55,525 nucleotides of DNA from a virus: IMG/VR virus record IMGVR_UViG_3300000116_000024, positions 1 to 55,525 of that record. One strand, 5' to 3'. Of this stretch, positions 1 through 30,600 are shown one piece after another (position 1 is the stretch's first letter; the number at the start of each line of letters is the position of its first letter). The notes under the pieces are model-generated. The model was not told where the DNA came from. It saw only the letters and a list, made by a program, of their open reading frames with translations, and made no database searches. A program made the position numbers and the translations under genes.

Positions 1-1036
1 ATAAATGATACTTTGTACCCAACACTCTCTTAACTTCATTATCTGCTTTTTCTGCTTCAGTAAATACTTTGGATCCAAACTTACCTCTATACCATTCTTT
101 AACTCTATCAGTTACCCTTTTATTAATTCTTTCATATTTACCATTAACTAGCATCTCATAATAACTAGTAGCTTTTTCTTCATCTAACAATAAAGGATCT
201 GCAACTTCATTAGTTTCTATCTTTCTAAGATTTGCTTTTGTTTCACCTAACTTATTTAGGAATTCTTTTTGTGCATCTGTAGTTTGATAATACACTTCTG
301 TATCACTTAATTCTAAAATGTTTCCTTCAAATTGACCTCCTATTACTCTTTCTGCAGTCTTAGAAAATATATCAATATTAGCTGTTTGATACTCTCCTCT
401 AAACCAGTCAAGTATAGCATTCCACATTCTTCTTACTAAAGATTGTTCCTCTTGTGTGTAAGCTTCTACATTACCTTCTGCAATAATTTCTGCAATAAGT
501 TTATCTACAGCCTCTTTCTTTATCTTACGAATATTTGGTTTACCATTAGGTAGTTGGTAGGCTTTTAAATCTCTATACTCAGCAAGTGTATCTTTATATA
601 TCTTAAACCTATCTATCTTAGATATAAGCTCTGTAATAAGTTTAGGATCTCTTTGTTCAATAATAGCTGTTGCAATATGCACCATCTCTTCTACAAGAGC
701 TACATCTTCTTTACCTTCAGCTATAGCAATTACTCCAGCAGATAAATCAGCAACAGCATTTACAGTGGAAGCATCTACATCAGTATTATCTTTAGCGTAG
801 TCAACAAGCTCTTGCATGTTTACGCCCATCTTCTCAATAACTTCCTTTGTCTTAGCTATAACTTCTGGAGATGCTGCAGTACCTTCTGTTCCAGCTACTT
901 GGTTCATTACATTGTACTCAGACTGAGGAACATTTCCATTATATTTATCCCATAAAAAATAAGCCATATCTTCTCCTCTAGAAGACGATAGTTCTTTCCA
1001 CTCTTTTAAATTTGTATTTGGACACGTTGTTGCCAT
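1..1036 (-). CDS. Giant virion-protein candidate, N-terminal 345 codons only (runs off left edge)
   Basis: An uninterrupted minus-strand frame starts with ATG at 1036 and is still open at base 1, so only about 345 residues are visible. The start overlaps the stop of the 4664-aa gene as TAATG, the same arrangement seen at 15030 and 26771, which suggests translational coupling. The protein begins MATTCPNTNLKEWKEL and then has a Ser-Arg-Gly-Glu-Asp stretch followed by AYFLWDKYNGNVP. The remainder is charged and helix-rich (for example a Glu/Lys-rich stretch around residues 65-80) with no signal peptide or membrane segment. I recognise no enzymatic domain in the visible part. Position directly after the RNA polymerase polypeptide suggests another late cargo or RNA-polymerase-associated protein. 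In crAss-like phages two or three giant proteins are normally adjacent. The gene is certain; the function is inferred from context only. Confidence 0.8.
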   Translation of the reverse strand, partial: MATTCPNTNLKEWKELSSSRGEDMAYFLWDKYNGNVPQSEYNVMNQVAGTEGTAASPEVIAKTKEVIEKMGVNMQELVDYAKDNTDVDASTVNAVADLSAGVIAIAEGKEDVALVEEMVHIATAIIEQRDPKLITELISKIDRFKIYKDTLAEYRDLKAYQLPNGKPNIRKIKKEAVDKLIAEIIAEGNVEAYTQEEQSLVRRMWNAILDWFRGEYQTANIDIFSKTAERVIGGQFEGNILELSDTEVYYQTTDAQKEFLNKLGETKANLRKIETNEVADPLLLDEEKATSYYEMLVNGKYERINKRVTDRVKEWYRGKFGSKVFTEAEKADNEVKRVLGTKYHL

Positions 1037-10000: not shown

Positions 10001-13000
10001 TATACATTATTACCATTGCTATCTATACTATATTTAGGAGATCCAAAAGATGCTTCAATAACTTGAGGTATACCCAATGCTGATTGACCTAATACAGCTT
10101 GTCTAAACTTAGCATATTGTTCTGTGACCGATGTCTTCACTGCTTCATCAGTACCCTCTCTAAACATGCTACCTTTAGTGTTGGTAAGACCTGCTTCAGG
10201 CATTGCTTGGTATATAGCATTGTCTAACGAAGATTCACCCTCTGGTATAGGTTGTCCGTCTTCTCCAACTAGCTCACCATTCTCATTAACCATCACCATG
10301 ATAATCATTGAGTCTTTAAATCTCTTAATTAGATCTGGATCACCATCTAGCATTCTTTCTACAACACCTGGTAATAACTGATCTTGGATAGCACTTGTTA
10401 AATAGATACCACGTATATCATCTCTATTCTCAAAAGAGTTTAGGTTTGCTCCAAACGTATTTGCTCTAGTCTGATGATCTTTACCTTCGTTTATAGGATT
10501 TGTTGCAACAGGAAGTATGTCTGTTGATTTTAACTTAATAGGATTATAAGGACCTTCATACTCTTTAAGAGGTACAGCTTTAATTCCTGTATCTAATATT
10601 TTGTCTAGAAGCTTTTGATCATTTATTATCTTTTGTTCTGCAGCTTTCTGAGCATTGTATTCATTCATGATAGATTGAAACCTATCTAGTATAATTTTTC
10701 TAGCTCTGTATTCATTTCTTAACTCAGTTATGTCTGACTCTAACTTTCTTACCTCAGATACAGTATTCTCAATATCTGCCTCATTAAGGTTTACATCTTT
10801 AGATATGTCATTGGTAAGTTGGAAATTAACTATTTCTTGTTTAAGTGCAGGCCAAGTTACATCTAAATCTCTACCAGCTGCTACATCACTTAATAAATCA
10901 TTTAAAGATTGTGCATAAGTATCATCTACTATGTACGTGCTCTTAATTGCTTTCTTAAATAAACTTGCTGCTTTTTTAGTAACCTGTCTTAAGGTGGTAC
11001 CCATTTTCTTAGCAGCCTTGATAATGTTAGCTAAGTTTTTACCATTGTCAGCTAGTATCTTTACTTGACTCTTAAGTTCTTTTAAAAACTCACCACTGTC
11101 TTCAGGAGCATCAGATATCTCATTAGCGTATTGTTCAAAGTAAGAAATGTCATTTAGCACTTCTTCTCTTTCAGCTTCAGCTAACTTTATAGTTTTATTC
11201 AGATCCTTTCGCATCTGAGTTAATTTATTAATAGATCTTGTAAATGACTTAGTTGCTTTAGAAAAAGTAAGTTTAATCTTAGGACCATCAGGACCAGCCT
11301 TCTTCATTTTTCTAATGTTTGCTAAGTCTTCTTTAACTTTGGCTAAATCTTCTGAAGCCTTAGTTATTGTTTTTTCTAGTTCAGCAATGTTTTGTTTACC
11401 TTCTTCACCTAGTTGCGTAAGTACTTCAAGTCTAGCCTCTCTATTTTTAGCAAGTGTTTTTTTATTCTTTGCAATCTCTTGAGGACTAGTAAATTGTTGT
11501 TCAGAAGCTTTTTGATCTTTACTTTGAACACTTCCAACTCTTGTAATCCTAGGAAGATCATAACCTTCTTGTGGAACAAAGAATGAGTTGTCTAGTTGTT
11601 TTCTTTTTATGTTACTATTTGAAACTTTAGTTTTAGCTTTAGGTGCAGCCTTTTTATATGTAGTTAATTCTTTTTTTAATTTAACTTCAGCACCAGGTTT
11701 TGTAAAGTTTGCATCATCATATTCTTTAAGAGCTTTTTTTGCTGCATCATATCTACCTCTAGTACCTTCTAAATCTTTTGGGTCCAGAGCATTTTCTGCA
11801 TCTTTAAACTCCTGTAATAGTATATCTCTTTCTTCTGTAGTTCCTGTACCTACTAGTACATCATATTTTGCGCTTTGTACTTGCTTACCATCTACTAATC
11901 TTCTAGGTCTGACAATTTTGTTTACAATTGTAGTTCCTTTTGGAACACTATCACTTTCCCTTTGTAATGCAAATTCTATAGTTTCATTGTCAAATATTTC
12001 TCTACCAATCTCATTATCAATAATGTATCCATCAGCCTCAACTTCTTTCTTTGCATTATTAAACCAAGCCATGTCCTCTTCATTGACTGATTCATCAGTA
12101 TGGTGAGCATTGTTTAGAAAGAATATTAGAGCTTCAGCTTTCTCAGCACCTGTTTTTGCATTAGCAAACATTGACTTAGCCCTGTTGATTCTTTTTTCTA
12201 ATTTTGAAACTTTTTGTTTAACATCAGCTTGTGTTGTTTCAACCTTAGTAGTTTTGTCAGATCCTTTAGTTTTATATACAAAGTAAAGCTTACCATTATC
12301 ATATTCAAGTCTACCTCTTACTCTTCCACCAAAGTTCTTACCACGGTTAAGTTCAAAGATTTCGTTTCTATGATTATAAAAGTAGTTAGCAGTTTTATTA
12401 TTTCTTGTAGTGCTAACTTTACCAAGTTTAAGTTTATTGAACGTTCCCCTAGTTAAATTTCTTTCTTCTCCTGTTTTAGTGTTTACTATTTTTAAAGTAC
12501 CATCTTCATTATATCCCTTAACTATAAGTGTACCTATCTTAAATATTTCATCTAAACCATCTTCATTATAGTCTACACTATTTCCAACAAAGTATTCTGT
12601 TTCTACCTCAACATCTACTACACCCTTTTCTGTTTGAACTTTAATAGTTTCTGGAGCAACATCAGGAGTATCTGTTTGTTCTTGTTTTATAGGTTCTGAA
12701 AGATATTTGCTAGGGTTCTCCTTAATATCTTCGTATGTTTTTATAAATGTTTGACGTTGAGCTGCAGCATCAGCTATATCATCTAAGTAAGAGCCAAGTG
12801 TATCTTTTTTCTCACCTAATATATCTAATGATTTAATTTGCTCAACAGCTTTGTTATATGCCTCAAAGTTTCCATCTACTACACTTTTAAGAACTTCTGA
12901 TGTATTTATACCTGCAGCAGTTAACTTTCCTTCTAAGGTTATTATCCTTTGATCAAAGTCTTCTGTTTTAAGAGCAGTATATAACATCTTGTTCATTACA

Positions 13001-15030: not shown

Positions 15031-17678
15031 TATTGTGGAATGTTAAGTGGTTGATTCTGTAATAATTTTTTTTCTTCTAATGTCATATCTCTTCCTGTAT
15101 AAAAACGAAAAAGAGCATCATCTGTCAATGAGTTCATAAAAGTTACCATTTCAGCTTTATTTAACCCTCTCCCACCTCCAAAGTCTATTTCAAAATTTGA
15201 AGTACGATTAGGAATCGTTGGATTAAGTGGGTCAGTTCCTTGAAGTTTTGGATCTAAGTAGTCAAAGTTTATTTGTAGGTAAACCTCTGGATCATTGTTC
15301 CTAGGGTTTCTTTTTGTTATTAAATTACCTGACACATTTCTTAAAAGTTTAATACTTGGAAAGTCCATTTGTTGTAGGTATGCATTTTGTGGAGTTGTAA
15401 CTCTAGAAGATTTACCAAACTCGTCAGGAATTGCTGTTGTAAAGAAATCTTTTTGATTAATGCTAGGATTAGTAGAAAGAAGTTGAGGCATGTACTTGCT
15501 ATCAAATGAAGCAACCTCAGGAGTTTTTTCTACTTTAATATCAAAAGACTTTGTAAGTAGTCCATATTGTTCGTCTGTTAATGGTATTGGTATATTAAAA
15601 CCTGCACCACTAACCCTAAGTTCTTGCACACCTGTATTTATAGATACATCATTTATTTTATCTTTTACAGCCATTATGTTTGCAGCTGTAGATTTATCTA
15701 GTCCTGGCCAACCACCTCTACCATTAGCAACAAGCTCGATTGTTCCTAATACAGACTGTAATTGATTTTTAACTTCTTTATCAGACATGTTAAGTGGTAC
15801 AGCAACATTTTGGTCTAGTGGTGTAGCTTTTAATATTAACTCTGACTCTAATTTATCTCTTCTTGTATTAATTTCTTGAAGTTGTTTTCTAACACCTTTC
15901 ATCATTTCATAACCAAGAGTTCCATCACTTGCTCTCCAATCTTTATATAATTGAAATGCTTGATCATTATTTAATGTACGTCTTGCTAACTCGTCATCCC
16001 ACCTTTTAACAATACCGCCAGATACTGCTTCCATTTTTGCAAAATCTTGAAAAGACTCTAGTAAAACAGCTGTTTGTTCAGCATTAAATCCTCCAAAGGT
16101 TGCATTTTGATATTCTACAGGAATTATATTAGATAAATCTATAGGTAGCTGTTTATCAACCACATCTGAAATTGATTTATTTTTAAATAAAGAACTATCA
16201 GCTCTACGTTGTGCATTTATGTAACCTTGTACATCTCCTACTGAAGAAGGTGATACTGTAGAAAACCCATTAGTTTTCGCTGTATTTAACAATCTATCAA
16301 ACTCAGTAAGTCCTTTTTCTTCTGATTCATAATCACCTTCATTAAATATCCCATCATTATTTACATCTACAAATCTTAATTGGTCATCCCAACCCATTAA
16401 ATCTGCAACTCTTTTTCTTTCTGAGGTAGCTAAATTTACTAAGTTAGTTCTCTTTGTAGTGTCATCTTTAATTATACTATCAGGAGTTATGTTCTCTCCA
16501 GGAATAGGAAAAGAATCTCCAGTTTTAGGTGTTTTAAGCAAGTCAACCTCTTCTCGTTTAAGACCTTGCATTATTTGATTATTTCTTACTTGCTCGTTAT
16601 GTTTTGCTAAAGCTAAAGCTCTATTGTCTTTTTGCATTTGAACAGTAAAATAAGGACTTACTTTTGAAGTTGTATCAACATCTCTACTAGAAAATGATTG
16701 AGATATATTCTCCATCCATTTTATTGTATAAAATTCTGCTTTTGAACCAGCTACATTACCTTCTTCAAAACCTTTAGAAACAGAATCATACTCTCTTTTA
16801 TTTGCTGTAATTAATGCATCTTGCATCGTTAGCTGTTGTTCAATTTGTAACTTTTGTGCAGGTGTTTGTACATTTTCTAATAAGTTTACAAGCTCAGATC
16901 TTTTTTCATTTAAAAATGTAAATCTTTTTTTGTAACCACTATTTATTTGATTAATGTAATCCTCAGTAGTAGTATTAGAATACTTATATTCTCCATCTAA
17001 TGATAGTTGTCTCCATGCTTGAGGGCTTAGACCAGATTTGAGAGCTGTTTGTATTTTTTCTGGTGAAAGTTCCTTTATAACTTCTTTAGTCATTACATCT
17101 ATGTACTTGTCTGTCACAGGATCAAACATTATTTCATTTGAAGTTACGTCTTGAGCAAGAGCTTTTATTATCTTTTGCGCATCTTCTTGAACATTTACAT
17201 ACGGAGAAACATTATTACTATACCTAGAACCATCAGTGTTAAACCACTTACTTACATTTTGTTTAAATTTTGCATCATTAGAAGGTGCCCATTTTCCTTC
17301 TAGTTGAAGTTTTTCAACAGCTGCTACATCCTTTTTATACTTAGCAGTATCTGAAACAGCGCCTATAACCTTAGGATCTTTTGATATTTGATTAGTCATT
17401 CCATTTACAGAATTAACTAAAGCAAAGTTAGAAAAGTCACCTCCTGCTACATTGGTTAATTGACTACCTAATGCATTAAGCTTTGACTGTAAGTATTGTT
17501 TATCTTCAGGTTTAGCGATTTCAAGTCCAGCAATATTATCAATACTTTGTTGTATCTTCTCTACTCCTTTGTCATAACGCTCCTGTTTGTATTGTCCAAC
17601 CTTTGCCATAGCCTCCACAGGAAGTTGTTGTACATAGGGATTGAACTTAATATTAGCTGGGTCTTTATATGATGCCAT
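15030..17678 (-). CDS. 882-aa virion cargo protein upstream of the virion RNA polymerase
   Basis: The protein opens MASYKDPANIKFNPYVQQLP and continues with helix-rich, Gln/Lys/Asp-rich sequence, a style I associate with the internal (cargo) proteins of crAss-like phages. No signal peptide, membrane helix or catalytic motif is visible. One local feature stands out: D-V-N-N-D-G-I-F-N-E-G-D at residues 438-449 matches an EF-hand/dockerin-type Ca-binding loop. The gene lies immediately before the RNA polymerase gene, its TAA overlapping that ATG, so the two are probably co-translated and co-packaged. A promoter-like TTG-N20-TACATTTG ends only 7 nt before the ATG, giving a very short or absent leader. 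Function is inferred from position: ejected or muzzle-bound cargo, possibly a partner of the polymerase polypeptide. Confidence 0.75.
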   Translation of the reverse strand: MASYKDPANIKFNPYVQQLPVEAMAKVGQYKQERYDKGVEKIQQSIDNIAGLEIAKPEDKQYLQSKLNALGSQLTNVAGGDFSNFALVNSVNGMTNQISKDPKVIGAVSDTAKYKKDVAAVEKLQLEGKWAPSNDAKFKQNVSKWFNTDGSRYSNNVSPYVNVQEDAQKIIKALAQDVTSNEIMFDPVTDKYIDVMTKEVIKELSPEKIQTALKSGLSPQAWRQLSLDGEYKYSNTTTEDYINQINSGYKKRFTFLNEKRSELVNLLENVQTPAQKLQIEQQLTMQDALITANKREYDSVSKGFEEGNVAGSKAEFYTIKWMENISQSFSSRDVDTTSKVSPYFTVQMQKDNRALALAKHNEQVRNNQIMQGLKREEVDLLKTPKTGDSFPIPGENITPDSIIKDDTTKRTNLVNLATSERKRVADLMGWDDQLRFVDVNNDGIFNEGDYESEEKGLTEFDRLLNTAKTNGFSTVSPSSVGDVQGYINAQRRADSSLFKNKSISDVVDKQLPIDLSNIIPVEYQNATFGGFNAEQTAVLLESFQDFAKMEAVSGGIVKRWDDELARRTLNNDQAFQLYKDWRASDGTLGYEMMKGVRKQLQEINTRRDKLESELILKATPLDQNVAVPLNMSDKEVKNQLQSVLGTIELVANGRGGWPGLDKSTAANIMAVKDKINDVSINTGVQELRVSGAGFNIPIPLTDEQYGLLTKSFDIKVEKTPEVASFDSKYMPQLLSTNPSINQKDFFTTAIPDEFGKSSRVTTPQNAYLQQMDFPSIKLLRNVSGNLITKRNPRNNDPEVYLQINFDYLDPKLQGTDPLNPTIPNRTSNFEIDFGGGRGLNKAEMVTFMNSLTDDALFRFYTGRDMTLEEKKLLQNQPLNIPQ

Positions 17679-17758: not shown

Positions 17759-20700
17759 TTATAAATTTCTTATTGCTCTTAGAATATTACTATTCTTATT
17801 ATTTTTTGTAACCTTCTTTCCGTACTTACCACTTTCTGGAATTTCTTCTAGCTCTTCTACTTCTTTTGTTTTTCCTTCTTCTTCTTTTATTTCCTTTTTA
17901 AATGGATTGTTTTGAGAAAACCAACTTAATAAAGAGGCAGCATTGTTAACTCCTTGATTCCCACCTGTAATTCCTTGTACCATACTTAACGGACTAATAC
18001 CTGTCATACCTTGACCTGTATTAAATTGAGTAGGATTTACAACATTTAATCTTTGATTGTTATCATATTTAAAAGTTGGATACATGTTAGCATATACTTT
18101 ATTCATAACATTTTCTAACTTGTTTTTAGAGTACTTGTCACTAATAGAGTTCAGTATATCTATATTTTGTGTACGTGTATTAGCTGCAGCCTGAGCTTGT
18201 CTATCTGCTTGCTGATCATAAATACCCAAGTTCTTTAACATAGCATCATTTAATGTAGCTTGATTTCCTGAATAAACATTATCTTTCATTGCTTGATTCT
18301 GTCTAAACTCTTCAGCATTAATTTTATTCAACGCATCATAAGTTGGAGCTTGTGCTAAAGCAAGTGCTGCAGGATTATTTTGCAATGTAGCATTTCTTTG
18401 CATTGCTCTAGATTGTGACGTTACATCATTTCTCATATCTTGAAGAGAAATATCATAAGGAACTCTTAGCTGAGGTTGAAAACCTTGAGCTTGTACAGGT
18501 TGTACCTGATTAGTAGCCATTGCATAATATTCTCCAAGAAGTTGATTCTTGTCAAGAGACTGATCTTCTGGTGAATTATTAAAATTAACACCAGGACCTA
18601 TATTTCCTTTAGGAGCAACAGTTGTTGTTTCAGTAGTAGTATCGGTATCACCAAGCATTACTTTCTCCTCTGTGTAGTTTGTTACTTCCTCAGCTTCCTT
18701 AGCAGGTGTAAATACAGCATCTCTAGTTTCTTGCCCAAATATTCCATCAACTTTAACAGGGTCAATACCTGCCTCTTTAGCTCTTTTATTAAATTCTTTC
18801 TGAAATTTTAATATAGCTGAAGATACTTTCTTACCCTTGTATGTTACCATTTTATTAGGATCAGTTTTACTCCAATCAAACCAAGGATTGTTTTCTTTCA
18901 AAGTATCATAATCTTCTTGTGTAACACCTCCAGCAAATGATGTCTTTGGATCAATCGCTTGACCTTCAGGCGTATATCCTAATGAGCTACCTGACATTTC
19001 CACAGCCTCTGTTGTATTTGTTTCAGGGTTTCTTCTTATATAAACATTTGGATTGTTAGGATCTACCTTATAGCCTGCTGCCTCTAACTCTTCCTCAGTC
19101 ATGTCAGTTAAAGGAATTTGTTTTTTATTAAAATCATTTGCACTTGGAGGATTGGTAGTTTCATTACCAGTAGTCTCAACACCATCTTCGCCCATCTTCA
19201 ATCTTGCTCCATACTTAGCATTTTCTATCCTCATAGGATCTTCAACCAATTTTCTTTTATTTATAAACTCATTTGCTTTTATTCCATAGTCATCAAATGT
19301 TTCATTCATAGCTTCTTGTAAATCAGCTAATATACTCTTCTTCTCAGCAATGTTTTTTAATTTCATATCTGCACCTTTTAATACTACATCCGCAGTTCTT
19401 CTTTCTAACTGTCCAAACACTGTATCATCTGATTCTAATCCTAAATCAGCAACCTTTGCTTGTGTTCTGTTAATACTAGCTTCGTCTTTATTTAAAACGT
19501 TAGCAACATAGTTTTTATACTTTTTACCTTTTGCTCGTTCATCCCCTATTTCTGAAATGTATTCTTCTGGAATCTTCATATCCCCATATACAACTAAGCT
19601 ATCATCTATTTCTTGTGCTGGTTCATTTTCCACCTCTACACTTGCGTTAGATGTTATATCTCCACCCATAGACATCTTTTTAGCATCATCACCATAAGCA
19701 ACACCTATTCCTGTTTGTCCTGTACTAGGATCACGATAGTCATGAGAGTTACCTTTAAATTGAATACTCTCTCCACCAGCATAAGGATTGTAAGAAACTG
19801 TTTCAGCTTTCCCACCCCATAGTGTTTTAAGATTTCCTCCCATTTTCATTGTGTCTAATGCAGAAGGGTTGGGTGAAACATAATCACCTCTCATGTTACC
19901 ACCACTTCTATAAGAAGGTACGTTTCCTCCATCACGCACGTATGAAGAATATCCTGCCTGAATAGAAGGAGCTATAGCACCATATGACATTTCTTTAGTA
20001 TTTTTTGCAGTAACCTCATTTTCTAACCTTTGTCTTCTATCGTTTCTATCAAGCAAATCTCCTGCAGCAGATCCAAGGAAACCACCTACAGCAGAACCTA
20101 AAGGACCAAAGGCACTACCAATAGTACCACCAATTTTACCACCAATGTTACTTCCAGCATCATCATTTACACCAACCATTCCAGCAAGTTGAGATCCTGC
20201 TGCACCGTACATTCCTCCACCATATGAAGCATTTCCAGCATCAAATGAGGTAAATCCTTGTGCAGCTTGTTTTAAGTAACCACCTTGACCAAATGATTTT
20301 TGTTGATTAGGATTAACAAGAGGCATGTATTCACCATTAAACATTCCACCATCTTGTGCTTTATTAAAACTACGTGCATTCTTAGCAAAGTTTGCCATTT
20401 TTACAACTTCTTTACTATATTTACTTTTATTAGCCATCACTTTATCAGCTGCTTCAGCTACAGACATTCCTCTTTTCTTAGCCCATGCTGTAAACTTACC
20501 TTCATTTTTAGGATTAATATTAATTCCACTTTTAGCTAGAACATTTGTTCCTACACCATATACTGGAAAGAACTCTTCTCCTGTATTTGTAAAATCTTCA
20601 GGACGTACATATGACCTATCTACTTTTTCTGGTGTTGTTTTAGATGCTTGTAAAGCAATATCAGACACTTGTCTAGCTTGCTTTGCAGAACCTAATGCTT

Positions 20701-21439
20701 CTTTTTGAGCTTCTATTTGATCTGCAATTTCTAAAGCATCACTTACAATAGGAACTCCCCAGTTTTGAACTGCGTCAGAATTCATAACATCCCCAAACTG
20801 ACTCATAGTATCACCCCCTTTAGCTTTTGGTGGGTTATGTCCCCAACCTTTTTTCTTAAGAGCTAGATGTTCCTTTAAAGTTTTAACTGTTTTAACTTCT
20901 CCTTTAGGACCATACATTTTATGTGCCTTAAACTTCTTAGTTGTTCCACCATTTTTAAAGTTACCACCTCCACCTAAAGAAGAACCTATGTCAAACCCTG
21001 TTCCAGACGTGTCTGAACTTGCAAATTGTGAAAATTGACTAGTGTCACCACCACCGCTACCACTACCTAAACCACCAAGCATACCACCAAGTTGACCAAG
21101 CATACCACCAAGTCCACCACCACCTTGTGGATTAGCAGTTTGTTGATTTGCTTCTAATTTGGCTCTGTATAACTCATCATCCTTAAGTTCTTTAGTACTT
21201 TTACCACCCATTAACTTAGCAGCACTATCATCCATATACTCCTGATCAATACGAATAGGTGTAAGATTTGATTGTGGGGTGCTTATGTTAGGAACCATAG
21301 TACCTATCTTTGCTTTTTTAGCTTTAAGTTTTTTTATGGCTTTTCCATGTTTTTTCATAAAGGCTTCCTCAGAAGGAAACTTCTTGTAAAACTCTGCTTC
21401 AGACTTAACGCCTGCTATTTTTAAAAATTCAGATCTCAT
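17759..21439 (-). CDS. 1226-aa virion/ejection protein with peptidoglycan-binding-like segment
   Basis: The N-terminus is basic (around residues 24-45, many Lys) and is followed by a Gly-rich stretch near residues 105-135 and a glycine-zipper stretch near residues 430-475 (repeats such as GGKIGGTIGSAFG). Glycine zippers are typical of membrane-inserting or pore-forming segments. Around residues 867-909 the sequence LKFQKEFNKR...VDGIFGQETRDAVF matches the PG_binding_1 fold, which binds peptidoglycan in many cell-wall hydrolases. The C-terminal third is Gln/Asn-rich. A KAQDGG motif at K360 links it to the 1776-aa and 4664-aa neighbours. The gene starts 1 nt after the 1776-aa stop. Together this suggests a protein ejected into the envelope that helps the genome cross the peptidoglycan and inner membrane. 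The peptidoglycan-binding call is fairly good; the pore role is inferred. Confidence 0.75.
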   Translation of the reverse strand: MRSEFLKIAGVKSEAEFYKKFPSEEAFMKKHGKAIKKLKAKKAKIGTMVPNISTPQSNLTPIRIDQEYMDDSAAKLMGGKSTKELKDDELYRAKLEANQQTANPQGGGGLGGMLGQLGGMLGGLGSGSGGGDTSQFSQFASSDTSGTGFDIGSSLGGGGNFKNGGTTKKFKAHKMYGPKGEVKTVKTLKEHLALKKKGWGHNPPKAKGGDTMSQFGDVMNSDAVQNWGVPIVSDALEIADQIEAQKEALGSAKQARQVSDIALQASKTTPEKVDRSYVRPEDFTNTGEEFFPVYGVGTNVLAKSGININPKNEGKFTAWAKKRGMSVAEAADKVMANKSKYSKEVVKMANFAKNARSFNKAQDGGMFNGEYMPLVNPNQQKSFGQGGYLKQAAQGFTSFDAGNASYGGGMYGAAGSQLAGMVGVNDDAGSNIGGKIGGTIGSAFGPLGSAVGGFLGSAAGDLLDRNDRRQRLENEVTAKNTKEMSYGAIAPSIQAGYSSYVRDGGNVPSYRSGGNMRGDYVSPNPSALDTMKMGGNLKTLWGGKAETVSYNPYAGGESIQFKGNSHDYRDPSTGQTGIGVAYGDDAKKMSMGGDITSNASVEVENEPAQEIDDSLVVYGDMKIPEEYISEIGDERAKGKKYKNYVANVLNKDEASINRTQAKVADLGLESDDTVFGQLERRTADVVLKGADMKLKNIAEKKSILADLQEAMNETFDDYGIKANEFINKRKLVEDPMRIENAKYGARLKMGEDGVETTGNETTNPPSANDFNKKQIPLTDMTEEELEAAGYKVDPNNPNVYIRRNPETNTTEAVEMSGSSLGYTPEGQAIDPKTSFAGGVTQEDYDTLKENNPWFDWSKTDPNKMVTYKGKKVSSAILKFQKEFNKRAKEAGIDPVKVDGIFGQETRDAVFTPAKEAEEVTNYTEEKVMLGDTDTTTETTTVAPKGNIGPGVNFNNSPEDQSLDKNQLLGEYYAMATNQVQPVQAQGFQPQLRVPYDISLQDMRNDVTSQSRAMQRNATLQNNPAALALAQAPTYDALNKINAEEFRQNQAMKDNVYSGNQATLNDAMLKNLGIYDQQADRQAQAAANTRTQNIDILNSISDKYSKNKLENVMNKVYANMYPTFKYDNNQRLNVVNPTQFNTGQGMTGISPLSMVQGITGGNQGVNNAASLLSWFSQNNPFKKEIKEEEGKTKEVEELEEIPESGKYGKKVTKNNKNSNILRAIRNL

Positions 21440-21440
21440 A

Positions 21441-24400
21441 TTAATTGTATTTGTCTAACCAGCCTCCTGATTGTGGGGTGTTGTAATTAGTAAAGTTAGT
21501 TAATTGATTTAGTTCTACCAAGGAACTACCGTTTTTTGCCATAGGATACTCTGTAAACTTAGTAGCACCAGGGAATGTTTGTGTACCTGTATTAGCTTGT
21601 ACCATTCTTGGTTCTCCTACATCTGGTACAACATATAATGGATTATCTCCATAACCATGTGTAGCCATAGTGTTTCCTGAAATCTCCGTTACTTCTCCTG
21701 GGTGTGCCCATTGTCCCATATCATCTTTTATAACTCCTCCTTTTTTGAGTTTTCTTAAACCATATTGAGGAAGCATTACTTCACCACTTGAATTTTGAAA
21801 AAAAGGTCTTAGTAGATCATCAGGAAGTTTTATTTTAGATATATTAGTATCAATTTGATTGTTTAAATAAGCTGCTATGTTTTCATTTATTCCCCTAGTC
21901 ACTGATCTAGAACTATTACCTGCTGCCCTATTTATGTTACCCATAGGATTCATTGGTTTATATCCCAAAAATATAGGATCTGCAACACCTTTCATTTTAG
22001 GACTAAAAACTTCATTTAATTGAGGTAAGTAAGATTGGTAAGATGTATCAGTTGACCCTGTAAATATGTCTCCTCTATTACTCATTCTAACTCTAGCTCT
22101 AGCATCTTTAACCATGTTTGCATAATCTCTTTTACTAGTATGTGGGCCTAGTTTCACTAATGGAACTAACTCTTCTGTAAAACCACCAGGTTTAACATAA
22201 GGGTACGATGATATATTAGCTAAGTCTTGACCACTTAAATCCTCTACATCAGTAGTAGAGTTTTTAGGAGCTGGTTTAGATTGTCTTACTCTATTTGGAA
22301 TTTCTGTTACAGCTTCATTGATTTGTGACGTTTTAGTAGCTACATTACCAGTAACTAGATTATCTACATTATCTACATCATCATAAATGTTACGAACCAT
22401 AGTATCAATATCTACACTAGATCGTGAAGGTGTTGAAGGTCTATTTAAACTAAATCCACTAATATCTGGATTTAGTTGAACAACACCGTATCTATTAACA
22501 TTTTCTATAGCCTGTTCTACACCTTCTTCAGTAGAATCTAAAGTTCCAACTACTTTTTTAGGTTTAGGAATAGTAGAGGTAAGATCATCTAACTCGCTTT
22601 GTAATTGTTTTTTATTTTTATAGAATATTGATTCTAAAATTGGATCATCAAGATTACTTTTTAAAGCTCTTTCTAACATAACCTGTCTGCTTCCACCCAT
22701 TTCTCTAAGAGTCATTACCTCATCTATGTTCTTAAGTATATCAAACTCAGAAGGATCTAACCTAGGTAAATCACTAGCTTTTGTAATCCCCTTAACTCTA
22801 GATGCATAAGTTTCTCTAACTTTTTTAGGTAACTTATCTAAAATCCTAGAAAAAATATTATTCATCTCTACATCTGGCTTGTTAACTCCTCCAAGCTCCC
22901 ACCATTTAGGATCAATATCAGAAAAGTCTTTTGCTAAATCTGAATTAAATTTAGATATGTTTTTAGTTTTGTCAATTAAATCATCAGAATATTTTCCAAA
23001 AGTTTTAGCAATAGAGTTTAGTTTAGGAGTAGCTTTTAATCCTAACTTAACAATATCGTCATAAAGTCCAACACCAACAAGATTTGTTGGATCAGCTACA
23101 ACATCCATAGCTGTATTTATAGAACCTCCTAAATCCCAACCTGGCTTATCTTCAAATCCAAATGCTTGAGATGGCAATCTTTGCATACCACTTCCAGGTA
23201 AAGCGTTAGAGAAATTATAATCATTTCCCCTTAAAGCTTCTATACCTTCGACCATAGCAGCTTGAGGTGCTTGTGCAGTTTCTAACGCTCCTTGTAAAAG
23301 TTGTCCTGGTATAGCTAAAGCATCTTCAGCAAGTCCTCTTTTAGTTTGAGCTTTTCTTCTAACAGCGTTTCCAATTGGACTATAATCGTTGTGATAAAGA
23401 TCTTTTTCTTGATCTGTTAAGGTATCATAATAAATATCTTTATTATAATCTACACCACTATTTATAACAACTTCATCTAACTGATTAGGATATGTAGCAA
23501 AAGCACCTCCTTCATATGTTTCTTTATACCTATCATCGTAGTTAGAATCATCAGGGAATACAAGCTCATACGCAGGTTCTTCAGAAGTCGCAGATTCTCC
23601 AGAAGTAGTTTGTACATCAGTATTCACTCCTCCAAAGTTTCCATTTTGAGCTTTAGGAACATCACCGCCATCTTCATATTTATCTAACCAACCACCATTT
23701 TTCTTTTTAGAATATAAATTGTTGTAAGTTGAGGCATCTGCTTTAAAAGATGTTCTTCTTTCTTGCTCATCTTTATTACCTCCAGACCAATGTCCAGTCA
23801 CCCAAAAATCTTCAATTGCTTGATCATCTTTATCTCCTGAAAAGAAAGCTTTAAGTTTTGCAGTAGGTTTATCTCTATAGTCAGCTAATAATAATGTTTT
23901 TTGTTGATCAGGTGTTAGCTCTGAAGCTTCTTTAATTTTTTTACTACGAATGTCTTTTATAAATTGTGGAAGTTCTAGTCCAGTTTCCTTAGAATAATTA
24001 TAAGCTCTATTAGCTGCAGTCTTAAAGCTATCTGGTTCAAATTGATATAACCCTCTTCCAAGACCTATACCAGTAGGATTATCTTTAGTTTTCTTTACCT
24101 TTTGTTTAGCTAAAGGATCATTTTTAGATTCATGGTAACTAATCATGCCAGAAAGCTTTTCCCAATCTTCAGTAGTACCACCACTAGATATTACAGCATC
24201 ATTTAATAATGAATCATAAAAAGATTTTGGTTTCTCTTCAATAGGTTTAATAGTTGGTTCAGTAAAATTTTCTAGGAAGGATGGGCTATTTTCTCTAATC
24301 TTCTCCCAATCATAAGTGTCTCCAGTTTGAGCTTTCTTTAATTTACCAGGTTCCATTGATGCATTACTAGATGTACGTCCATACATCATACCTGATGCAC

Positions 24401-26771
24401 CTGGAAGACTTCCACCATTTTTAAAACCGTTACTTAATCCAGTTGCTTCTCCAACTGCATCTTCTATTCCTTGTGTTATTAGTTCTTTTTTTGCAAGTAT
24501 AAGTCCAACATTGGGTATAACTTGTTTTGCGAGTGTGTTAGTAATCAGACTTCCTCCTAAAGTGTACAAATTCACCGCATCAAGTCCTGAACCTGCTAAG
24601 CTATAAAGATCTTGATTTTTTTGGTTTTCATTTAAAAGACTGTTTCTCTTTGGGTTTCTAAAACTATTTGATGATTTAAATCCTACGTCAAAAGGAGAAG
24701 TTATAACTTCACTTAATGTCCTAGGTATCCAAGGAAGTTTGTTTTGCTCCTCTTTCAAATTGTTATAACCTCTAAAAAGAGCTTTTCCTATTCCAGGTTT
24801 TTTAAGATATTTGTTGAATTTAGCGTCATACTCTTTTATTCTATTAGCAAATTGTTGTTGCCTTAGCTTGTACATTTCTTCAGACTCACCTTTTAGTCTG
24901 TTTGGATTAGTTTCTAATTGATCTTTGTGAAACTCTTTCTTTGTTTGATAGCTAGTCTTTTGCTTTCTAGAGTTAGGCGGAACGTATTGGTCCATAGGAA
25001 ATCCAGAAGCTTCTAACTGAACCCTCTTTAGTTGTTCTTCTGGAGAAGGTAGAAACATATCAGAAGATGGTTCATCTTTACCATTTTGTGCTTTTTCTAC
25101 ATCTCCACCATTTTCATACTTATCTAACCATCCACCGCTTTTATACTCAGGTCTCCTAACTTCATTATCTTCATTTTTAAAGTATACATTTTCTGATAAA
25201 CCATCTTCTTCCCCTTGTTCACCTCTTACATACCCATCAGGAAGCATATTATTATATGAAGCATATTTTATAACATCATCTTTTGTTTTATCATCTATAG
25301 GTAACGAACCAATAACAGATCCAAAAAGGTTATTAAGTACATCCTCACCAGACTCTTGAAGTTTTGTTGACCAATCTCTTTTATCTTTGTCACCAAACAA
25401 GGTTGTAAGTTCATGACCTATCCCTAATGCATTAGAACCTAATAAGCCTAAAGCATCAGATATAAGAGGAATGTTTCCTGTTTTGTTTGCTATAGCTTCT
25501 TGAGTTAATCTAGTAGCTTGAGCATGTCTCATATTATCTATATTAGCCAACTCATCTGGATTCTCTGCAAACTCTCTAGCTTCTCCTTGAGGATCTCCTA
25601 GATACTTATTGATAGCCTCTTTTATTCCATTTTGTGCTTTAGGAGGATAAGGAGTGTTGTTTGGGCGTAAGTTATCCTTTCTATAAGCCTCTCTAGTTTG
25701 CATTGTTTTAAAGTTACCATTGAGCTCTTTTATATAATGAAAACCTTGTGACTCAGGATTTTCTATTCCCATTTTTTGTAAAAGTCCTAAAGGTATTGGT
25801 TTATCATTTTGATTATAAGGCTTGTGCTGATAAATAGGTTGTGCTTCTATATCCCCAGATGTTAATAATTCTAAATTTGGTTTAAAAGGTTCTATTCCAT
25901 AACTGTCAAGTTGAGATAGAGGTTCTTCTATAGGTCTTTTAGGTGTCTCTTTAGATGGAGTTAGTTTAGTTTCAATTCTATCTTTTTGTGAGTTTTGTTC
26001 TACTACAACTTTTTGTCTAGGTTTAGCATTAGAATAATTAAAAACACTTCTAACATCTTGAGAACCTCCCATTATATTTAAGCCTACATTATATAAATTT
26101 CCTGTTCCATTAAACTCATAATTATCTGGACTAGTTCCTGTCCAATATTTATCCTTATCTATATATTCTGTAACTCCTATAGGGTCTATGTTTTTATTAA
26201 AAAGTTGCATAGGTAAATTAGTATTTACCATATCATCTTGCAAATCTAAAACCTTATATTTATCTTTATTTATATGTTTAACATATTTAGGTTTTAAATT
26301 TTCTAAAGCTTCAAAAGCTTTACTTCCTCTTTTAGTAAGAATATTAGCTCCTTCACCGTCCCAATTAGAAGCATCAATACCTTTTTCTTTAAGCATTTTC
26401 TTTTTCATTGCAAGATAATCTGGATTAGAAACGGAGTGTCTTTCTAATTTATAATTATTTTTCAATAAACTTTTTTGCACTTTTTTATAATCATTATAAA
26501 CTTCTAAACTATCTTGATAAGCTTTATACCTAGGATCATCTTTAGATTCAACTGTTAGTGTTTCTTCTACTTCTGTACCATCTTGAGCTTTAGTTACAGA
26601 ACCTCCGTCCTGATACTTATCTAACCATCCTCCATTAATGGCTTTCAAAGGCGTAGCCCCACTAGCAATAGCTCCAAAGTATTTTCTTTGCTTTGCTGTG
26701 AGAGGTTTACCTTTTATGTAACCGTCTGTAAGTATCTTTTTAGCTTTAGCTGCTGATAAACCTTTTGCCAT
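21441..26771 (-). CDS. 1776-aa virion cargo protein with lytic transglycosylase domain and repeated GGWLDKY motif
   Basis: A lysozyme/transglycosylase-like domain spans about residues 860-1000. ISYHESKND carries the presumed catalytic Glu881, followed by GRGLYQFEP, a usual combination in SLT-type enzymes that cleave murein glycan strands. The rest is a chain of segments separated by a recurrent unit GGWLDKY(Q/E)(D/N)GG(S/D)V.KAQ(N/D)G with Trp at 49, 548 and 1028; a last half copy ends the protein (Trp1771 to Asn1776). Extra KAQ(N/T)G copies occur at K378 and K813. Near the C-terminus QWAHPGEVTEISGN precedes a terminal TEYPMAKNG segment. The start codon overlaps the stop of the 290-aa gene (TAATG). 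It is most likely packaged and used during entry to open the host wall; the repeated motif may be a processing or docking site. Confidence 0.8.
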   Translation of the reverse strand: MAKGLSAAKAKKILTDGYIKGKPLTAKQRKYFGAIASGATPLKAINGGWLDKYQDGGSVTKAQDGTEVEETLTVESKDDPRYKAYQDSLEVYNDYKKVQKSLLKNNYKLERHSVSNPDYLAMKKKMLKEKGIDASNWDGEGANILTKRGSKAFEALENLKPKYVKHINKDKYKVLDLQDDMVNTNLPMQLFNKNIDPIGVTEYIDKDKYWTGTSPDNYEFNGTGNLYNVGLNIMGGSQDVRSVFNYSNAKPRQKVVVEQNSQKDRIETKLTPSKETPKRPIEEPLSQLDSYGIEPFKPNLELLTSGDIEAQPIYQHKPYNQNDKPIPLGLLQKMGIENPESQGFHYIKELNGNFKTMQTREAYRKDNLRPNNTPYPPKAQNGIKEAINKYLGDPQGEAREFAENPDELANIDNMRHAQATRLTQEAIANKTGNIPLISDALGLLGSNALGIGHELTTLFGDKDKRDWSTKLQESGEDVLNNLFGSVIGSLPIDDKTKDDVIKYASYNNMLPDGYVRGEQGEEDGLSENVYFKNEDNEVRRPEYKSGGWLDKYENGGDVEKAQNGKDEPSSDMFLPSPEEQLKRVQLEASGFPMDQYVPPNSRKQKTSYQTKKEFHKDQLETNPNRLKGESEEMYKLRQQQFANRIKEYDAKFNKYLKKPGIGKALFRGYNNLKEEQNKLPWIPRTLSEVITSPFDVGFKSSNSFRNPKRNSLLNENQKNQDLYSLAGSGLDAVNLYTLGGSLITNTLAKQVIPNVGLILAKKELITQGIEDAVGEATGLSNGFKNGGSLPGASGMMYGRTSSNASMEPGKLKKAQTGDTYDWEKIRENSPSFLENFTEPTIKPIEEKPKSFYDSLLNDAVISSGGTTEDWEKLSGMISYHESKNDPLAKQKVKKTKDNPTGIGLGRGLYQFEPDSFKTAANRAYNYSKETGLELPQFIKDIRSKKIKEASELTPDQQKTLLLADYRDKPTAKLKAFFSGDKDDQAIEDFWVTGHWSGGNKDEQERRTSFKADASTYNNLYSKKKNGGWLDKYEDGGDVPKAQNGNFGGVNTDVQTTSGESATSEEPAYELVFPDDSNYDDRYKETYEGGAFATYPNQLDEVVINSGVDYNKDIYYDTLTDQEKDLYHNDYSPIGNAVRRKAQTKRGLAEDALAIPGQLLQGALETAQAPQAAMVEGIEALRGNDYNFSNALPGSGMQRLPSQAFGFEDKPGWDLGGSINTAMDVVADPTNLVGVGLYDDIVKLGLKATPKLNSIAKTFGKYSDDLIDKTKNISKFNSDLAKDFSDIDPKWWELGGVNKPDVEMNNIFSRILDKLPKKVRETYASRVKGITKASDLPRLDPSEFDILKNIDEVMTLREMGGSRQVMLERALKSNLDDPILESIFYKNKKQLQSELDDLTSTIPKPKKVVGTLDSTEEGVEQAIENVNRYGVVQLNPDISGFSLNRPSTPSRSSVDIDTMVRNIYDDVDNVDNLVTGNVATKTSQINEAVTEIPNRVRQSKPAPKNSTTDVEDLSGQDLANISSYPYVKPGGFTEELVPLVKLGPHTSKRDYANMVKDARARVRMSNRGDIFTGSTDTSYQSYLPQLNEVFSPKMKGVADPIFLGYKPMNPMGNINRAAGNSSRSVTRGINENIAAYLNNQIDTNISKIKLPDDLLRPFFQNSSGEVMLPQYGLRKLKKGGVIKDDMGQWAHPGEVTEISGNTMATHGYGDNPLYVVPDVGEPRMVQANTGTQTFPGATKFTEYPMAKNGSSLVELNQLTNFTNYNTPQSGGWLDKYN

Positions 26772-27643
26772 TATTTATAACTTATTTGTGCAGGTGTTGT
26801 TATGAATTGACTTACCAAGTGTACCGTTGATCTATTATCAAGGATATGTCTTACTTTTAAATCTTTTGCTCTTAGAGGTGACTTTCTGTACGTGCTAGGA
26901 CCATAGTTCATATTCTCCTGATTAACTACCTTATCTAAAGACTTAGATGTACAAGGTGTGTTAAATAGAGGAATACTACTATTTATTTGTAGTGCCCAGA
27001 ACGTATTATATTGATAGAAGTTATCACTCTTTGTATATAGAATAGTTTTACTATCTTCATTAAAGATAGGATAATTTCCGTAAGCTGATAAATTATTTTC
27101 AGGTTTTCGCACAAGCTCTAATATACCTGTAGACTGTTGACCATTAAATAATACAGCTTTGTTAAACCATTCATTGTTTACTTCTACTCTACGATTAGCA
27201 TCAAACTGTTCAGTTTCACTTTGATAATATCTATATGCTTTAGTATAATCTTTTACATTTTGTAATATCTCATCTTGATATTTATAAGAAAAAGGATACT
27301 CAATGATGTAAGGTTCTATATGACCATAGTAATAATTATATCTAGATTGATTAGTTAAATGTGACCATATACATCCTGTACCATTTTCTACATATGGCGT
27401 ATCAACCCATTCTTCATTTGTTATATCTTCTAATGGAAATATTATTTCAAACTCACAACTACCTGTTGACTTAATCTTTACAGAAGTTGCAGCTTCATCT
27501 ATTTCTAATGATATACCTTCAACAAGCTCCTCCTTAGTTACACCAGCTCGTAACATAACATCTTGGATAGTTAATATATCAAATGGTCCTTGATTATTAC
27601 CAGATGATACAACTCTTATTGATATTGTTTTTGTATTTGCCAT
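26771..27643 (-). CDS. 290-aa virion appendage protein with shared N-terminal module
   Basis: The first ~75 residues (pattern: I-S-I-R-V, GPFDI, then SVKIKSTGSCEFEI) resemble the N-terminal modules of the 71-, 111- and 358-aa proteins at 37.5-39.1 kb, which suggests a common docking domain. The remainder is rich in Tyr, Asn and Trp with no membrane segment. It may contact the tail or host, but I do not recognise its family. It sits 9 nt downstream of the 1919-aa muzzle-like gene and its stop overlaps the start of the 1776-aa gene, so it belongs to the tail/cargo block. Call as a virion protein is by context. Confidence 0.65.
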   Translation of the reverse strand: MANTKTISIRVVSSGNNQGPFDILTIQDVMLRAGVTKEELVEGISLEIDEAATSVKIKSTGSCEFEIIFPLEDITNEEWVDTPYVENGTGCIWSHLTNQSRYNYYYGHIEPYIIEYPFSYKYQDEILQNVKDYTKAYRYYQSETEQFDANRRVEVNNEWFNKAVLFNGQQSTGILELVRKPENNLSAYGNYPIFNEDSKTILYTKSDNFYQYNTFWALQINSSIPLFNTPCTSKSLDKVVNQENMNYGPSTYRKSPLRAKDLKVRHILDNRSTVHLVSQFITTPAQISYK

Positions 27644-27652
27644 TTTAATATA

Positions 27653-30600
27653 TTAGGTTTGACACGATGAAGGTTGAACTAATGTTGCTCCAGGTATTGG
27701 TTGATTTGAGCAAACGCTAACTGTTACACCAATTGCTACATTTAATGGTGTCCATTCATTTGTTTCACAAGCTTGATATCCTCCATTAAATGGACCAGTA
27801 ACATCATACTGATTACATTCTAACGGTACACAAATTTCAGTATCAACAATAACTCCATTTTCTACATTAAATACATAAGCATTAAAACCATTTTGGTAAG
27901 TGCTTTCTGTAGAATACCAACCATCTGGAACAAGAGTGCAATCAATTCCTGCACCATCATAAAGAACAGTATCTACATTTAAACCATCTGAAGAATTATA
28001 CATAAAACTTCTAAGTGTAGGAACTCTTGATGGTTGAGGGTCTCCAAAGACTAACGCTGCTGCACTACAAGCATCTTGAGCACTACCTGTACTTATTACT
28101 GGAGGATCTAGATTTTCTTGGTAACCTTCTAATAAAGAACTGTTTATTAAGCCAGAAGGTCTTGAACATGCTGTTGTAGTTGGAGGAATAACTATTGTTG
28201 CAGTTCCTGCTAGTGTACAATTTGTTAGGGTAAATATAGCATCTCCTATTTCACAATCCGCTTGTTGAGTTGTACTTGTAGTTGTAGTAAACAACGGTGG
28301 ACTTGTTGATGTACTTGTTGTAGTAATAGGTATTACAGGTCCTACTTCTCCAGCTATAACATCAAAATTAAGATCACAACAATCATTCTTTCCTGAATAG
28401 AAAAAAGCATTATCTGCTATATAAAAATTAGGAAGGTATGAGTGAAAAGATATCCAGCTTTTTATATTAAAGTCATAAGACATTGTCCATGACTTATTAC
28501 AGAAATACTTTTCGTTATGTAATGATATAGGTGTTCTTCCACGACTTACACTATTATAAAAGAAGTCACCTTCTTCATCGTACGCTATAGAATCTAACAA
28601 AGGAGCATAATCAAGTTTAGTAATGATTATTCTATCAAACTTACTATCGTATACACCATGTAAACCAATACCACTAAAAGCATTGTCTGTTTCTACATTA
28701 GGAAAAAATCTAAGTATATGAAACGGAAGCTCATCTTTCATGAACTTATTTACTCCAGAATTAAACGAAGTTAAATCAACAGCTTGACCAGCTATTATAA
28801 ATATTTGACCTCTCTTAGCATCAGCTGTAATTTGACCTTGTGGTATCTTTAATAAAAACTTATTTTGAGATCCTACATAACCAAGGTCTGTCTCAGCATA
28901 ATCAATTGGTGGAGCCCCATTAAATAATCTAGGATTTCCAACATAAGCTGCTTGAGGGTTACTTGTATCAATTGTTAATAGATTATTATACAGTAATGAT
29001 TTGTTTTCAAAACGAGCAAGTATTGCTTTGTTCTGAATACCATCTAATGATGTAAGGTTTCCAAAGTTTTGAGGAAAGTCAAAAAAGGAAAGTGCTCTAT
29101 ATACTAACCAGTTATTTACTCTATTGTCAGCATTTGTTGAAGCTGGATCAGAATAGATAGTTCTAAATGGGTAATTAGTAAAACATTCATCATCTTTCCA
29201 ATCAGCAGGAAGGTGTGAAAATGAATTTTCTTTATTTTGCTTAGAGAATGTTACATTATAATAATATGTATTGTCCTGAGCAATAGGTACATTAGTTTCT
29301 TGTACCCAATCATCAGGTATTCCTGAACTTACATGTGGCCAGAAATCTCCTTCTTTATTATTAAATGCTTGACGTAAATCTGTATTATATGTACTTTCAC
29401 AATAAAAACTAGGAACACCGTATGCAAAGTTATACATATATCCATCGTAGAAAGTTCTAGCTGAACCATTTGCAATAGTTGATGGATCAGTAGCACAATC
29501 AAAGTTGTGAGCTTTGTATGAAATTATATTTCTCATAGGAACATCACCATCACTTGTTACTAGATAATCTTCTAGTATAGATCTTGCTGAGTGCCAATAT
29601 TTTGGATATCCTACATTACCTATTTCATCATAAAATATATCACTGTCATCAGGGGCATTTACTCTGTTGTCAATAAAGAAAGGAAGTTTAGTTTTATATG
29701 CAAACTTTGAGATGAACACATCTCCACCAAAAACAATACCTGTATCTTCTCCAATAGTAGATGTAAATAAACTAGAGATTATTTCTTGATATCCTGTATC
29801 AATAGTTTGGTAAGAATATATTTGTCCCCATTGATTAGGAACTATATTCTTCATTGATGCATAATAAGAAAGTACAGAAATATCTCTTTCTTTAGCAGGT
29901 GTAGCACATGTACCACTTCCACATTCAGTACCAGTACCAGGATTAGAAGTAATTGTAAATCTAGAGTTATCAAAAATTTCAGATTGGTCACCAGTTGGAT
30001 TTATAGTAGGAGTATCTGTTGGAAGAGGTAGAGGAGGAACTGTTTCATCCTTATCTTCTGTTTTAACAAACACAGAACTCTCTCTATTCCAATTATTAAT
30101 ATCTAACTCATCTTTTCCTAATGATTGAACTCCAGGAATTAAGTATCTAGAAATATCAATTTCTCTTTGTTTAATACCTACATCTTGAGGACTTAACGTT
30201 AATGATGCACTATTTTCAATATCAAAAGAGTAATCATAACTAGCTCTAGAGTTAAATGACATTCCATAGTTTCTTCTAGTAATACCATTTATATAAATTG
30301 TAAGATATGATTGATACACTGTAAACATTACCCCAGCATTAAAATCAGTAAGATCTGCAACTTCTTCAGAACTTTCTAAAGCATCTTGTTGGGCTTCTTT
30401 AGAAAGCAGTTTATATTTAGCATTGTCTTTAACTTCTACAAAATGAGCTTTACCAGCTCCAAACATTACACTCTCTAACTTAAGTACACCACCTAAGAAA
30501 GGTTGTCCAAAAGATGTTTCAGGAGAGTTAAATATTTGTCTATTAGCACTTTCTGATTTTACAGGATCTTGAGGTGTTTCTATTTGACAATTTAGTGTAG

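What the first reader, a model, noticed from the sequence alone, without database searches (positions are those of the whole stretch)
21441..26771. Repeated GGWLDKY...KAQ(N/D/T)G motif in three neighbouring cargo proteins
Seen directly: the 1776-aa protein has three full copies of a ~16-residue unit (Trp49, Trp548, Trp1028) and a half copy that is its exact C-terminus (Trp1771-Asn1776). The core KAQ(N/D/T)G also occurs at K378 and K813 of that protein, at K360 of the 1226-aa protein and at K8 of the 4664-aa polymerase protein. Copies sit between domains or at termini. A shared short motif in co-packaged giant proteins suggests a virion-protease site, a sorting tag for loading into the capsid/tail, or a docking site for the muzzle.
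Basis: partly seen in the sequence, partly recalled or inferred. Interest (0 to 1): 0.75.

Follow-up and report, generated by a model that had tools for sequence, protein, structure and literature searches.

The report
Tags bracketing a phage's injected effectors
A short peptide, GGWLDKY, sits at both ends and between the interchangeable modules of one protein in a large group of uncultured crAss-like phages, and a second tag, KAQxG, starts many of their other proteins, so these look like the labels that load or anchor proteins the phage carries into its host.

Summary
It contains two separable signals. A, GGWLDKY, occurs only in the 1776-aa protein. B, KAQxG, is the part shared with the 1226- and 4664-aa proteins. 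Both far exceed chance. Relatives in IMG/VR place the 1776-aa gene in a fixed slot between the muzzle-side genes and the cargo genes. The slot protein is a mosaic of 204 to 2069 aa, with changing modules: ADP-ribosyltransferase, peptidase, lysozyme/amidase, acetyltransferase, phosphatase. A ends the protein within two residues of the stop in 92 of 94 complete slot proteins. It also opens the protein or directly follows the N-terminal domain, and lies at internal module borders. Synonymous sites vary freely, so selection acts on the peptide. B is a second, mostly N-terminal tag on the virion RNA polymerase homologue, the C1 cargo homologue and about 100 unrelated small basic proteins. Best reading: A is a docking or retention peptide of a modular, injected polyvalent-type effector, and B a T4-CTS-like head-loading tag. 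Copies at both exact ends argue against A being mainly a protease site. Virion presence and binding partners remain untested. No held paper contains these motifs.

The parts
21441..26771 (-). Slot protein (1776 aa): mosaic, polyvalent-type protein carrying four GGWLDKY and five KAQ[NDT]G
26577..26633 (-). Copy 1, residues 47-65: GGWLDKYQDGGSVTKAQDG, directly after the N-terminal domain
25080..25136 (-). Copy 2, residues 546-564: GGWLDKYENGGDVEKAQNG
23640..23696 (-). Copy 3, residues 1026-1044: GGWLDKYEDGGDVPKAQNG; left border of a module (1022-1258) that sits directly after the N-terminal domain in relatives
21444..21467 (-). C-terminal copy, residues 1769-1776: GGWLDKYN, exact C-terminus
25626..25640 (-). 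KAQNG, residues 378-382 of the slot protein
24321..24335 (-). KAQTG, residues 813-817 of the slot protein
26634..26771 (-). N-terminal domain, residues 1-46 (KAKKILTDGYIKGKPLTAKQRKYFGAIASG type), one of three alternative starts in relatives
23724..24218 (-). Candidate lysozyme-like module, residues about 852-1016 (YHESKNDP...GLYQFEP); inferred by eye, no profile above threshold
   Evidence: weak; no PDB match
21543..21743 (-). Conserved beta-like block, residues about 1677-1743 (IKDDMGQWAHPGEVTEI...KFTEYPM), near-universal in slot proteins
21468..21521 (-). C-terminal block, residues 1751-1768 (SLVELNQLTNFTNYNTPQ type) before the terminal motif
17759..21439 (-). 1226-aa protein, homologue of cargo protein C1 (crAss001 gp45) by position, a shared PHROG chain and a matched Gly-rich hydrophobic segment
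20348..20362 (-). KAQDG, residues 360-364 of the 1226-aa protein, just after its phrog_20603 domain
21302..21316 (-). KAKIG, residues 42-46 of the 1226-aa protein, where relatives have KAQxG after the N-terminal mini-domain
15030..17678 (-). 882-aa protein, C2 (gp46) position in the cargo block; no A or B motif
1036..15030 (-). 4664-aa virion RNA polymerase homologue (gp47 position), DFDID at 3756-3760
14995..15009 (-). KAQTG, residues 8-12 of the 4664-aa protein (MAKDKLPKAQTG): N-terminal tag
26771..27643 (-). 290-aa protein directly upstream of the slot gene in relatives; candidate docking partner
27653..33412 (-). 1919-aa muzzle-type virion structural protein

Best explanation
The 1776-aa protein is an exchangeable, probably virion-borne effector protein of the polyvalent type: a chain of cargo modules (cell-wall hydrolases, ADP-ribosyltransferases, peptidases and others) made and carried with C1, C2 and the virion RNA polymerase and ejected into the host. 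GGWLDKY is a short docking or retention peptide with glycine hinges, selected at the protein level. It is placed at both ends and between modules so that each module stays flanked by an anchor to the same virion component (candidates: the muzzle-side 290-aa protein, muzzle, tail lumen, portal-bound C1). New modules can be swapped in between anchors without losing loading. KAQxG is a second, mostly N-terminal tag that marks proteins for the head or the cargo zone, working like the T4 capsid targeting sequence. Shown here: the two motifs, their positions, the mosaic, protein-level selection, restriction to this phage group. Inferred: virion location, anchoring, loading and ejection.
For: C-terminal copy within two residues of the stop in 92 of 94 complete slot proteins; 17 of 88 non-redundant ones keep it behind other upstream sequences. 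First copy opens the protein in 33 of 90, follows the Zn-ribbon start in 28 of 29 and the LTDKQRRFFGAI start in 22 of 27. In loci found through the neighbouring gene alone, 46 of 54 complete slot ORFs end in the motif. Homology breakpoints within 8 aa of internal copies: 428 of 3015 against 86 for random placement, maximum 147; a window module is found shuffled with the motif as its left border. Synonymous positions vary as in background. One gene-sized cluster per genome, reversed-pattern control zero; WLDKY only in the slot protein of nine ~110-kb relatives. GGWLDKYxTAA in 257 Gb of bacterial genomes: one hit, not the motif (GGWFDKYL). Modules: ART-PolyVal, ADPrib_exo_Tox, Peptidase_M91, SLT, His_Phos, GNAT, LysM+Amidase_2; PHROG 'internal virion protein with endolysin domain'. 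KAQ.G: 53 observed against 4.3, first 22 residues 16 against 0.2, scrambled controls at or below chance; ~100 small basic proteins start MxxIKKAQxG. 12 of 14 sampled records of 69 kb or more fetched by that tag carry the full 290-aa-family gene.
Against: No virion proteomics exists for any phage with GGWLDKY that I could find; packaging is inferred from synteny with crAss001, where gp45-47 were detected by mass spectrometry (PMC10172136), and crAss001 has no slot gene. No binding partner was shown. AlphaFold gave no usable model of the slot backbone (mean pLDDT 38 on a shallow alignment). Nothing shows that the tagged small basic proteins are in virions. Flexible-linker and protease roles are not excluded.
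Confidence: 0.5

Rival explanations
1. The motifs are cleavage sites: a virion or effector protease cuts the mosaic protein into modules at GGWLDKY/KAQxG, and trims the N-terminal tags of KAQxG proteins, as T4 gp21 trims its targeting sequences.
For: Internal copies lie at module borders; flanking Gly-Gly is typical of several viral proteases (from memory); polyvalent proteins are proposed to be processed by zincin peptidases (PMC5512222); some slot proteins carry peptidase domains; KAQxG lies 5-12 residues from N-termini.
Against: GGWLDKY is kept 3 residues after Met and 0-1 residue before the stop, where cutting has no effect; no maturation protease recognised by Pfam or PHROG in the window ORFs scanned; the zincin-like helix in the 4664-aa protein reads HEAFE, not HExxH.
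Confidence: 0.2
2. The motif is only a flexible, partly unstructured linker that helps modules unfold, pass the tail and refold; its sequence is inherited with the linker and has no partner.
For: Gly-rich flanks and low-confidence model; ejection is thought to need partial unfolding (PMC10172136).
Against: Trp-Leu are near-invariant while flanks drift, and exact terminal placement is not expected of a linker.
Confidence: 0.15
3. The motif is a DNA-level seam for recombination that shuffles cassettes.
For: Module exchange happens at the motif.
Against: Synonymous positions vary like background at five of six codons; 57 different 21-mers among 151 copies.
Confidence: 0.05
4. Composition or chance.
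For: None beyond the motifs being short.
Against: Shuffles and scrambled or reversed controls.
Confidence: 0.005

Closest known systems
Polyvalent proteins (Iyer et al. 2017, PMC5512222)
   Same: Multidomain phage proteins encoded near virion genes, combining ART, peptidase, lysozyme and other conflict domains.
   Different: No conserved GGWLDKY bracketing or fixed slot was found there; the term crAss does not occur in that paper's main text.
T4 capsid targeting sequence (CTS) of internal proteins (PMC3012670)
   Same: A short conserved tag on otherwise diverse internal proteins, as KAQxG on the polymerase homologue, C1 and many small basic proteins.
   Different: No sequence similarity claimed; encapsidation and cleavage untested; KAQxG also occurs inside proteins.
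crAss001 cargo proteins gp45-gp47 (Bayfield et al. 2023, PMC10172136)
   Same: Same gene order: muzzle, C1, C2, polymerase-associated protein. gp45 has AFGGWLNTQGG at 425-435, at the start of its resolved portal-bound domain 425-552.
   Different: crAss001 has no slot protein and no GGWLDKY in the region read; the gp45 resemblance is short and not shown to be homologous.
T7-type internal virion protein with lytic domain (phrog_342)
   Same: One slot protein matches it at 2.5e-13: an ejected cell-wall hydrolase.
   Different: Only one module of one member; the mosaic carrier is different.
Encapsulin or carboxysome cargo-loading peptides (from memory)
   Same: Works-like comparison: short conserved peptide at termini or between domains, joined by flexible linkers, that loads cargo into a shell.
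   Different: No relation by sequence was tested.

Membership tests
Crassvirales-type cargo block | Portal, major head protein, muzzle, C1, C2 and virion RNA polymerase in conserved order | tested here: met
   Portal phrog_6547 1e-94, head protein phrog_11589 1.5e-37, structural phrog_37948 1e-97; polymerase hits cr108_1 (Steigviridae) 1e-12; 882 aa hits csAssE-Sib 3e-7. Muzzle link to gp44 weak, E 3e-4; C2 to gp46 not found by hhalign.
C1 cargo protein (gp45-like) | Shared domains with gp45 or Steigviridae relatives | tested here: met
   phrog_20603 in the 1226-aa protein and the cr108_1 protein; phrog_37425 in cr108_1 and gp45; hhalign match of the Gly-rich hydrophobic segment E 5e-5.
Polyvalent proteins | Several effector-type domains in one polypeptide, encoded with virion genes | tested here: met
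   Slot proteins in relatives: ART-PolyVal, ADPrib_exo_Tox, M91, SLT, GNAT, His_Phos, LysM+amidase. For the window protein itself no Pfam match, so membership rests on the family.
Polyvalent proteins | Delivered with the virion into the host | not testable with these tools
   Needs virion proteomics.
T4-type capsid targeting sequence (for KAQxG) | Same short N-terminal tag on non-homologous proteins | tested here: met
   16 against 0.2 expected in first 22 residues; ~100 diverse proteins; the DUF6321 domain occurs in 534 other phage records by matches that, in the rows listed, cover only residues after the tag.
T4-type capsid targeting sequence (for KAQxG) | Encapsidation and removal by the prohead protease | not testable with these tools
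   No virion data for these phages.
Protease cleavage site (for GGWLDKY) | Placed where cutting releases a product | tested here: not met
   Not met for the terminal copies, 0-2 residues from the stop in 92 of 94, or within ten residues of Met in 34. Internal copies remain compatible.
DNA recombination seam | Reduced synonymous variation | tested here: not met
   only the Leu codon is biased to TTA.

The most novel reading that the evidence does not exclude
These phages use a two-signal cargo code: KAQxG at N-termini selects proteins for the head, and WLDKY peptides anchor each module of a swappable effector chain to the ejection apparatus, so that new effectors become injectable by being inserted between two WLDKY anchors.
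Probability: 0.3. Interest if true: 0.85.

Novelty: new variant of a known kind. Interest (0 to 1): 0.7.

Why it matters
If the reading holds, one can find injected effectors of a large uncultured phage group from sequence alone, by reading what lies between WLDKY copies or behind MxxIKKAQxG. It also makes a poorly understood step testable: how tailed phages choose and order the proteins they eject before DNA.

Tried and rejected
Pfam on the window slot protein: no domain. PDB sequence search of the candidate lysozyme module: nothing. AlphaFold of the minimal slot protein (mean pLDDT 38) and of the 290-aa protein (51, only residues 1-80 confident); fold search of the latter found nothing at E below 0.001. 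hhalign of the C2 family with single-sequence gp46: no support, so C2 is assigned by position and the csAssE-Sib match. The 290-aa protein did not align with gp44. tblastn of the tags in 50,697 annotated phage genomes: none, so no cultured phage with GGWLDKY was found; Leptolyngbya phage Lbo-JY46 has only the B tag, on its C1-position protein (MKIRIIGLPKAQIG). Marine virus AG-345-E15, the closest DUF6321 record, has neither tag in the 40 kb read. The DNA-seam idea was tested and rejected. Selection bias: loci L001-L119 were fetched by the motif itself, so rates were re-measured on loci fetched by the neighbouring gene.

Full report
Observation. Shuffles exclude chance. Two motifs must be kept apart: A = GGWLDKY, present only in the 1776-aa protein, and B = KAQxG, shared by the three proteins. 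In three places they adjoin as GGWLDKY-x-x-GG-x-V-x-KAQ[ND]G.

What the phage is. Portal, major head and virion structural PHROGs match strongly. The 4664-aa protein has the DFDID motif and matches the large protein in the polymerase-associated position of uncultured phage cr108_1, Crassvirales, Steigviridae. The 882-aa protein matches a structural protein of csAssE-Sib. The 1226-aa protein shares phrog_20603 with the cr108_1 protein in the C1 position, which shares phrog_37425 with crAss001 gp45; a Gly-rich hydrophobic segment also aligns directly. So the block reads muzzle (1919 aa; link to gp44 weak), 290 aa, slot protein (1776 aa), C1 (1226), C2 (882), polymerase protein (4664). In crAss001 muzzle and C1 are adjacent, and gp45, gp46, gp47, gp49 and gp50 were found in virions by mass spectrometry (PMC10172136). 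That the window proteins are virion cargo is an inference from this synteny.

The slot protein. Nearly every complete ORF with a hit lies in the same gene slot, between a ~290-aa protein ending QISYK and the C1 homologue. In 38 of 48 whole records with hits, all hits of a record fall in one gene-sized stretch on one strand, and the reversed pattern gives none. In nine ~110-kb relatives WLDKY occurs only in the slot protein, with one unrelated FLNKF match. In 257 Gb of bacterial and archaeal genomes the pattern GGWLDKYx-TAA occurs once, and that case encodes GGWFDKYL in a Bacillus hydrolase-like ORF.

Anatomy. Slot proteins range from 204 to 2069 aa. Of 94 complete ones, 92 end in the motif within two residues of the stop. 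Of the non-redundant set, 71 carry the FTNYN block before it and 17 have other sequences there, so the terminal peptide itself is kept. The other end is equally regular: 33 of 90 start with WLDK within ten residues of Met, 29 start with a Zn-ribbon followed by the motif in 28, and 27 with the LTDKQRRFFGAI domain followed by the motif in 22. Loci fetched only through the 290-aa neighbour gave 46 of 54 with the terminal motif. The exceptions are near-variants (GGWLDTL, GGWLDNL, GGWMDKYQ), two inserted ORFs, two fusions to C1, and one protein extended past the motif by LysM and amidase modules.

Modules and borders. Pfam finds ART-PolyVal, ADPrib_exo_Tox, Peptidase_M91, SLT, His_Phos, GNAT and SprT in different slot proteins; PHROGs adds endolysin, lytic tail and internal virion protein families. 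Ends of pairwise homology cluster at internal copies: 428 of 3015 within 8 aa, against 86 for random placement. The window's segment 1022-1258, starting at copy 3, matches the segment directly after the N-terminal domain in L085, L092, L172 and L231, and an internal segment in L169. Modules therefore move with the motif as border. Synonymous sites of the motif vary as in background except for a TTA bias at Leu, so the peptide, not the DNA, is under selection.

The second tag. In 1125 ORFs of the window and nine relatives KAQ.G occurs 53 times against 4.3 expected, and 16 times against 0.2 in the first 22 residues; AKQ.G, KQA.G and G.QAK do not exceed chance. It marks the polymerase homologue, C1 (after a ~35-aa mini-domain), slot proteins and clusters of small, very basic proteins. 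A scan for MxxIKKAQxG found 117 distinct ORFs, about 100 of them 65-260 aa with about 27% Lys+Arg and unlike bodies. Of 14 records of 69 kb or more in a sample of the records fetched by that tag, 12 carry the full 290-aa-family gene. One tagged body, DUF6321, matches 534 other phage records over its domain, not over the tag in the rows listed.

Mechanism. For GGWLDKY the best reading is a docking or retention peptide. The exact terminal copies, near-invariant Trp-Leu, glycine hinges and repetition between modules fit anchors; they do not fit a site whose only use is to be cut. For KAQxG the best reading is a loading tag that works like the T4 capsid targeting sequence, which is likewise the only conserved part of diverse internal proteins (PMC3012670). 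The partner is unknown. One lead: crAss001 gp45 has AFGGWLNTQGG at 425-435, the first residues of its portal-bound domain 425-552. Another: a 14-residue helical segment bound to the muzzle is not assigned to a protein with certainty. Neither is evidence of homology.

Limits. No virion data, no partner, no usable structure. The window's own modules have no Pfam match; the lysozyme assignment of residues 852-1016 is by eye. The literature search covers only the held open-access papers.

Noticed in passing
L290:5878-8407, L277:6125-8314, L270:18499-19532, L262:636-2263: Clusters of small, very basic proteins, many starting M..IKKAQxG and ending CKYGCK or KKKK, with DUF6321 members and, in two clusters, a DUF5856-like ORF nearby; may be internal head or DNA-binding proteins.
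   Followed up: partly
L164 (crAss001 gp45, residues 425-435): AFGGWLNTQGG lies at the start of the portal-bound domain 425-552 resolved by cryo-EM.
   Followed up: partly
L223 and L233, ORFs of 1183 and 1245 aa: Slot protein fused in frame to C1; the junction read in L233 has lost GGWLDKY and is FTNYNTMAKNGKALKKAQRG.
   Followed up: no
L219:10312-16011 (L128 and L238 look alike but run off the contig): Slot protein extended beyond the usual terminal motif by LysM and Amidase_2 modules.
   Followed up: yes
L182, L220: A 174-aa ORF (possibly a homing endonuclease, judged by eye) between the 290-aa gene and the slot gene.
   Followed up: no
window 4664-aa protein, residues 2379-2383: HEAFE in place of a zincin HExxH; the second acidic residue is invariant in four homologues, so the metallopeptidase may be altered or inactive in this group.
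   Followed up: no
L161:9927-11414 (Leptolyngbya phage Lbo-JY46, XAI97386): In a cultured phage the gene after the muzzle-position gene encodes a beta block like that of slot proteins (by eye) plus a lysozyme-like C-terminus (phrog_4067 transglycosylase 3e-4).
   Followed up: partly
GGWLDKY copies in IMG/VR loci: The Leu codon of the motif is TTA in 117 of 151 copies against 45% in background; unexplained.
   Followed up: no
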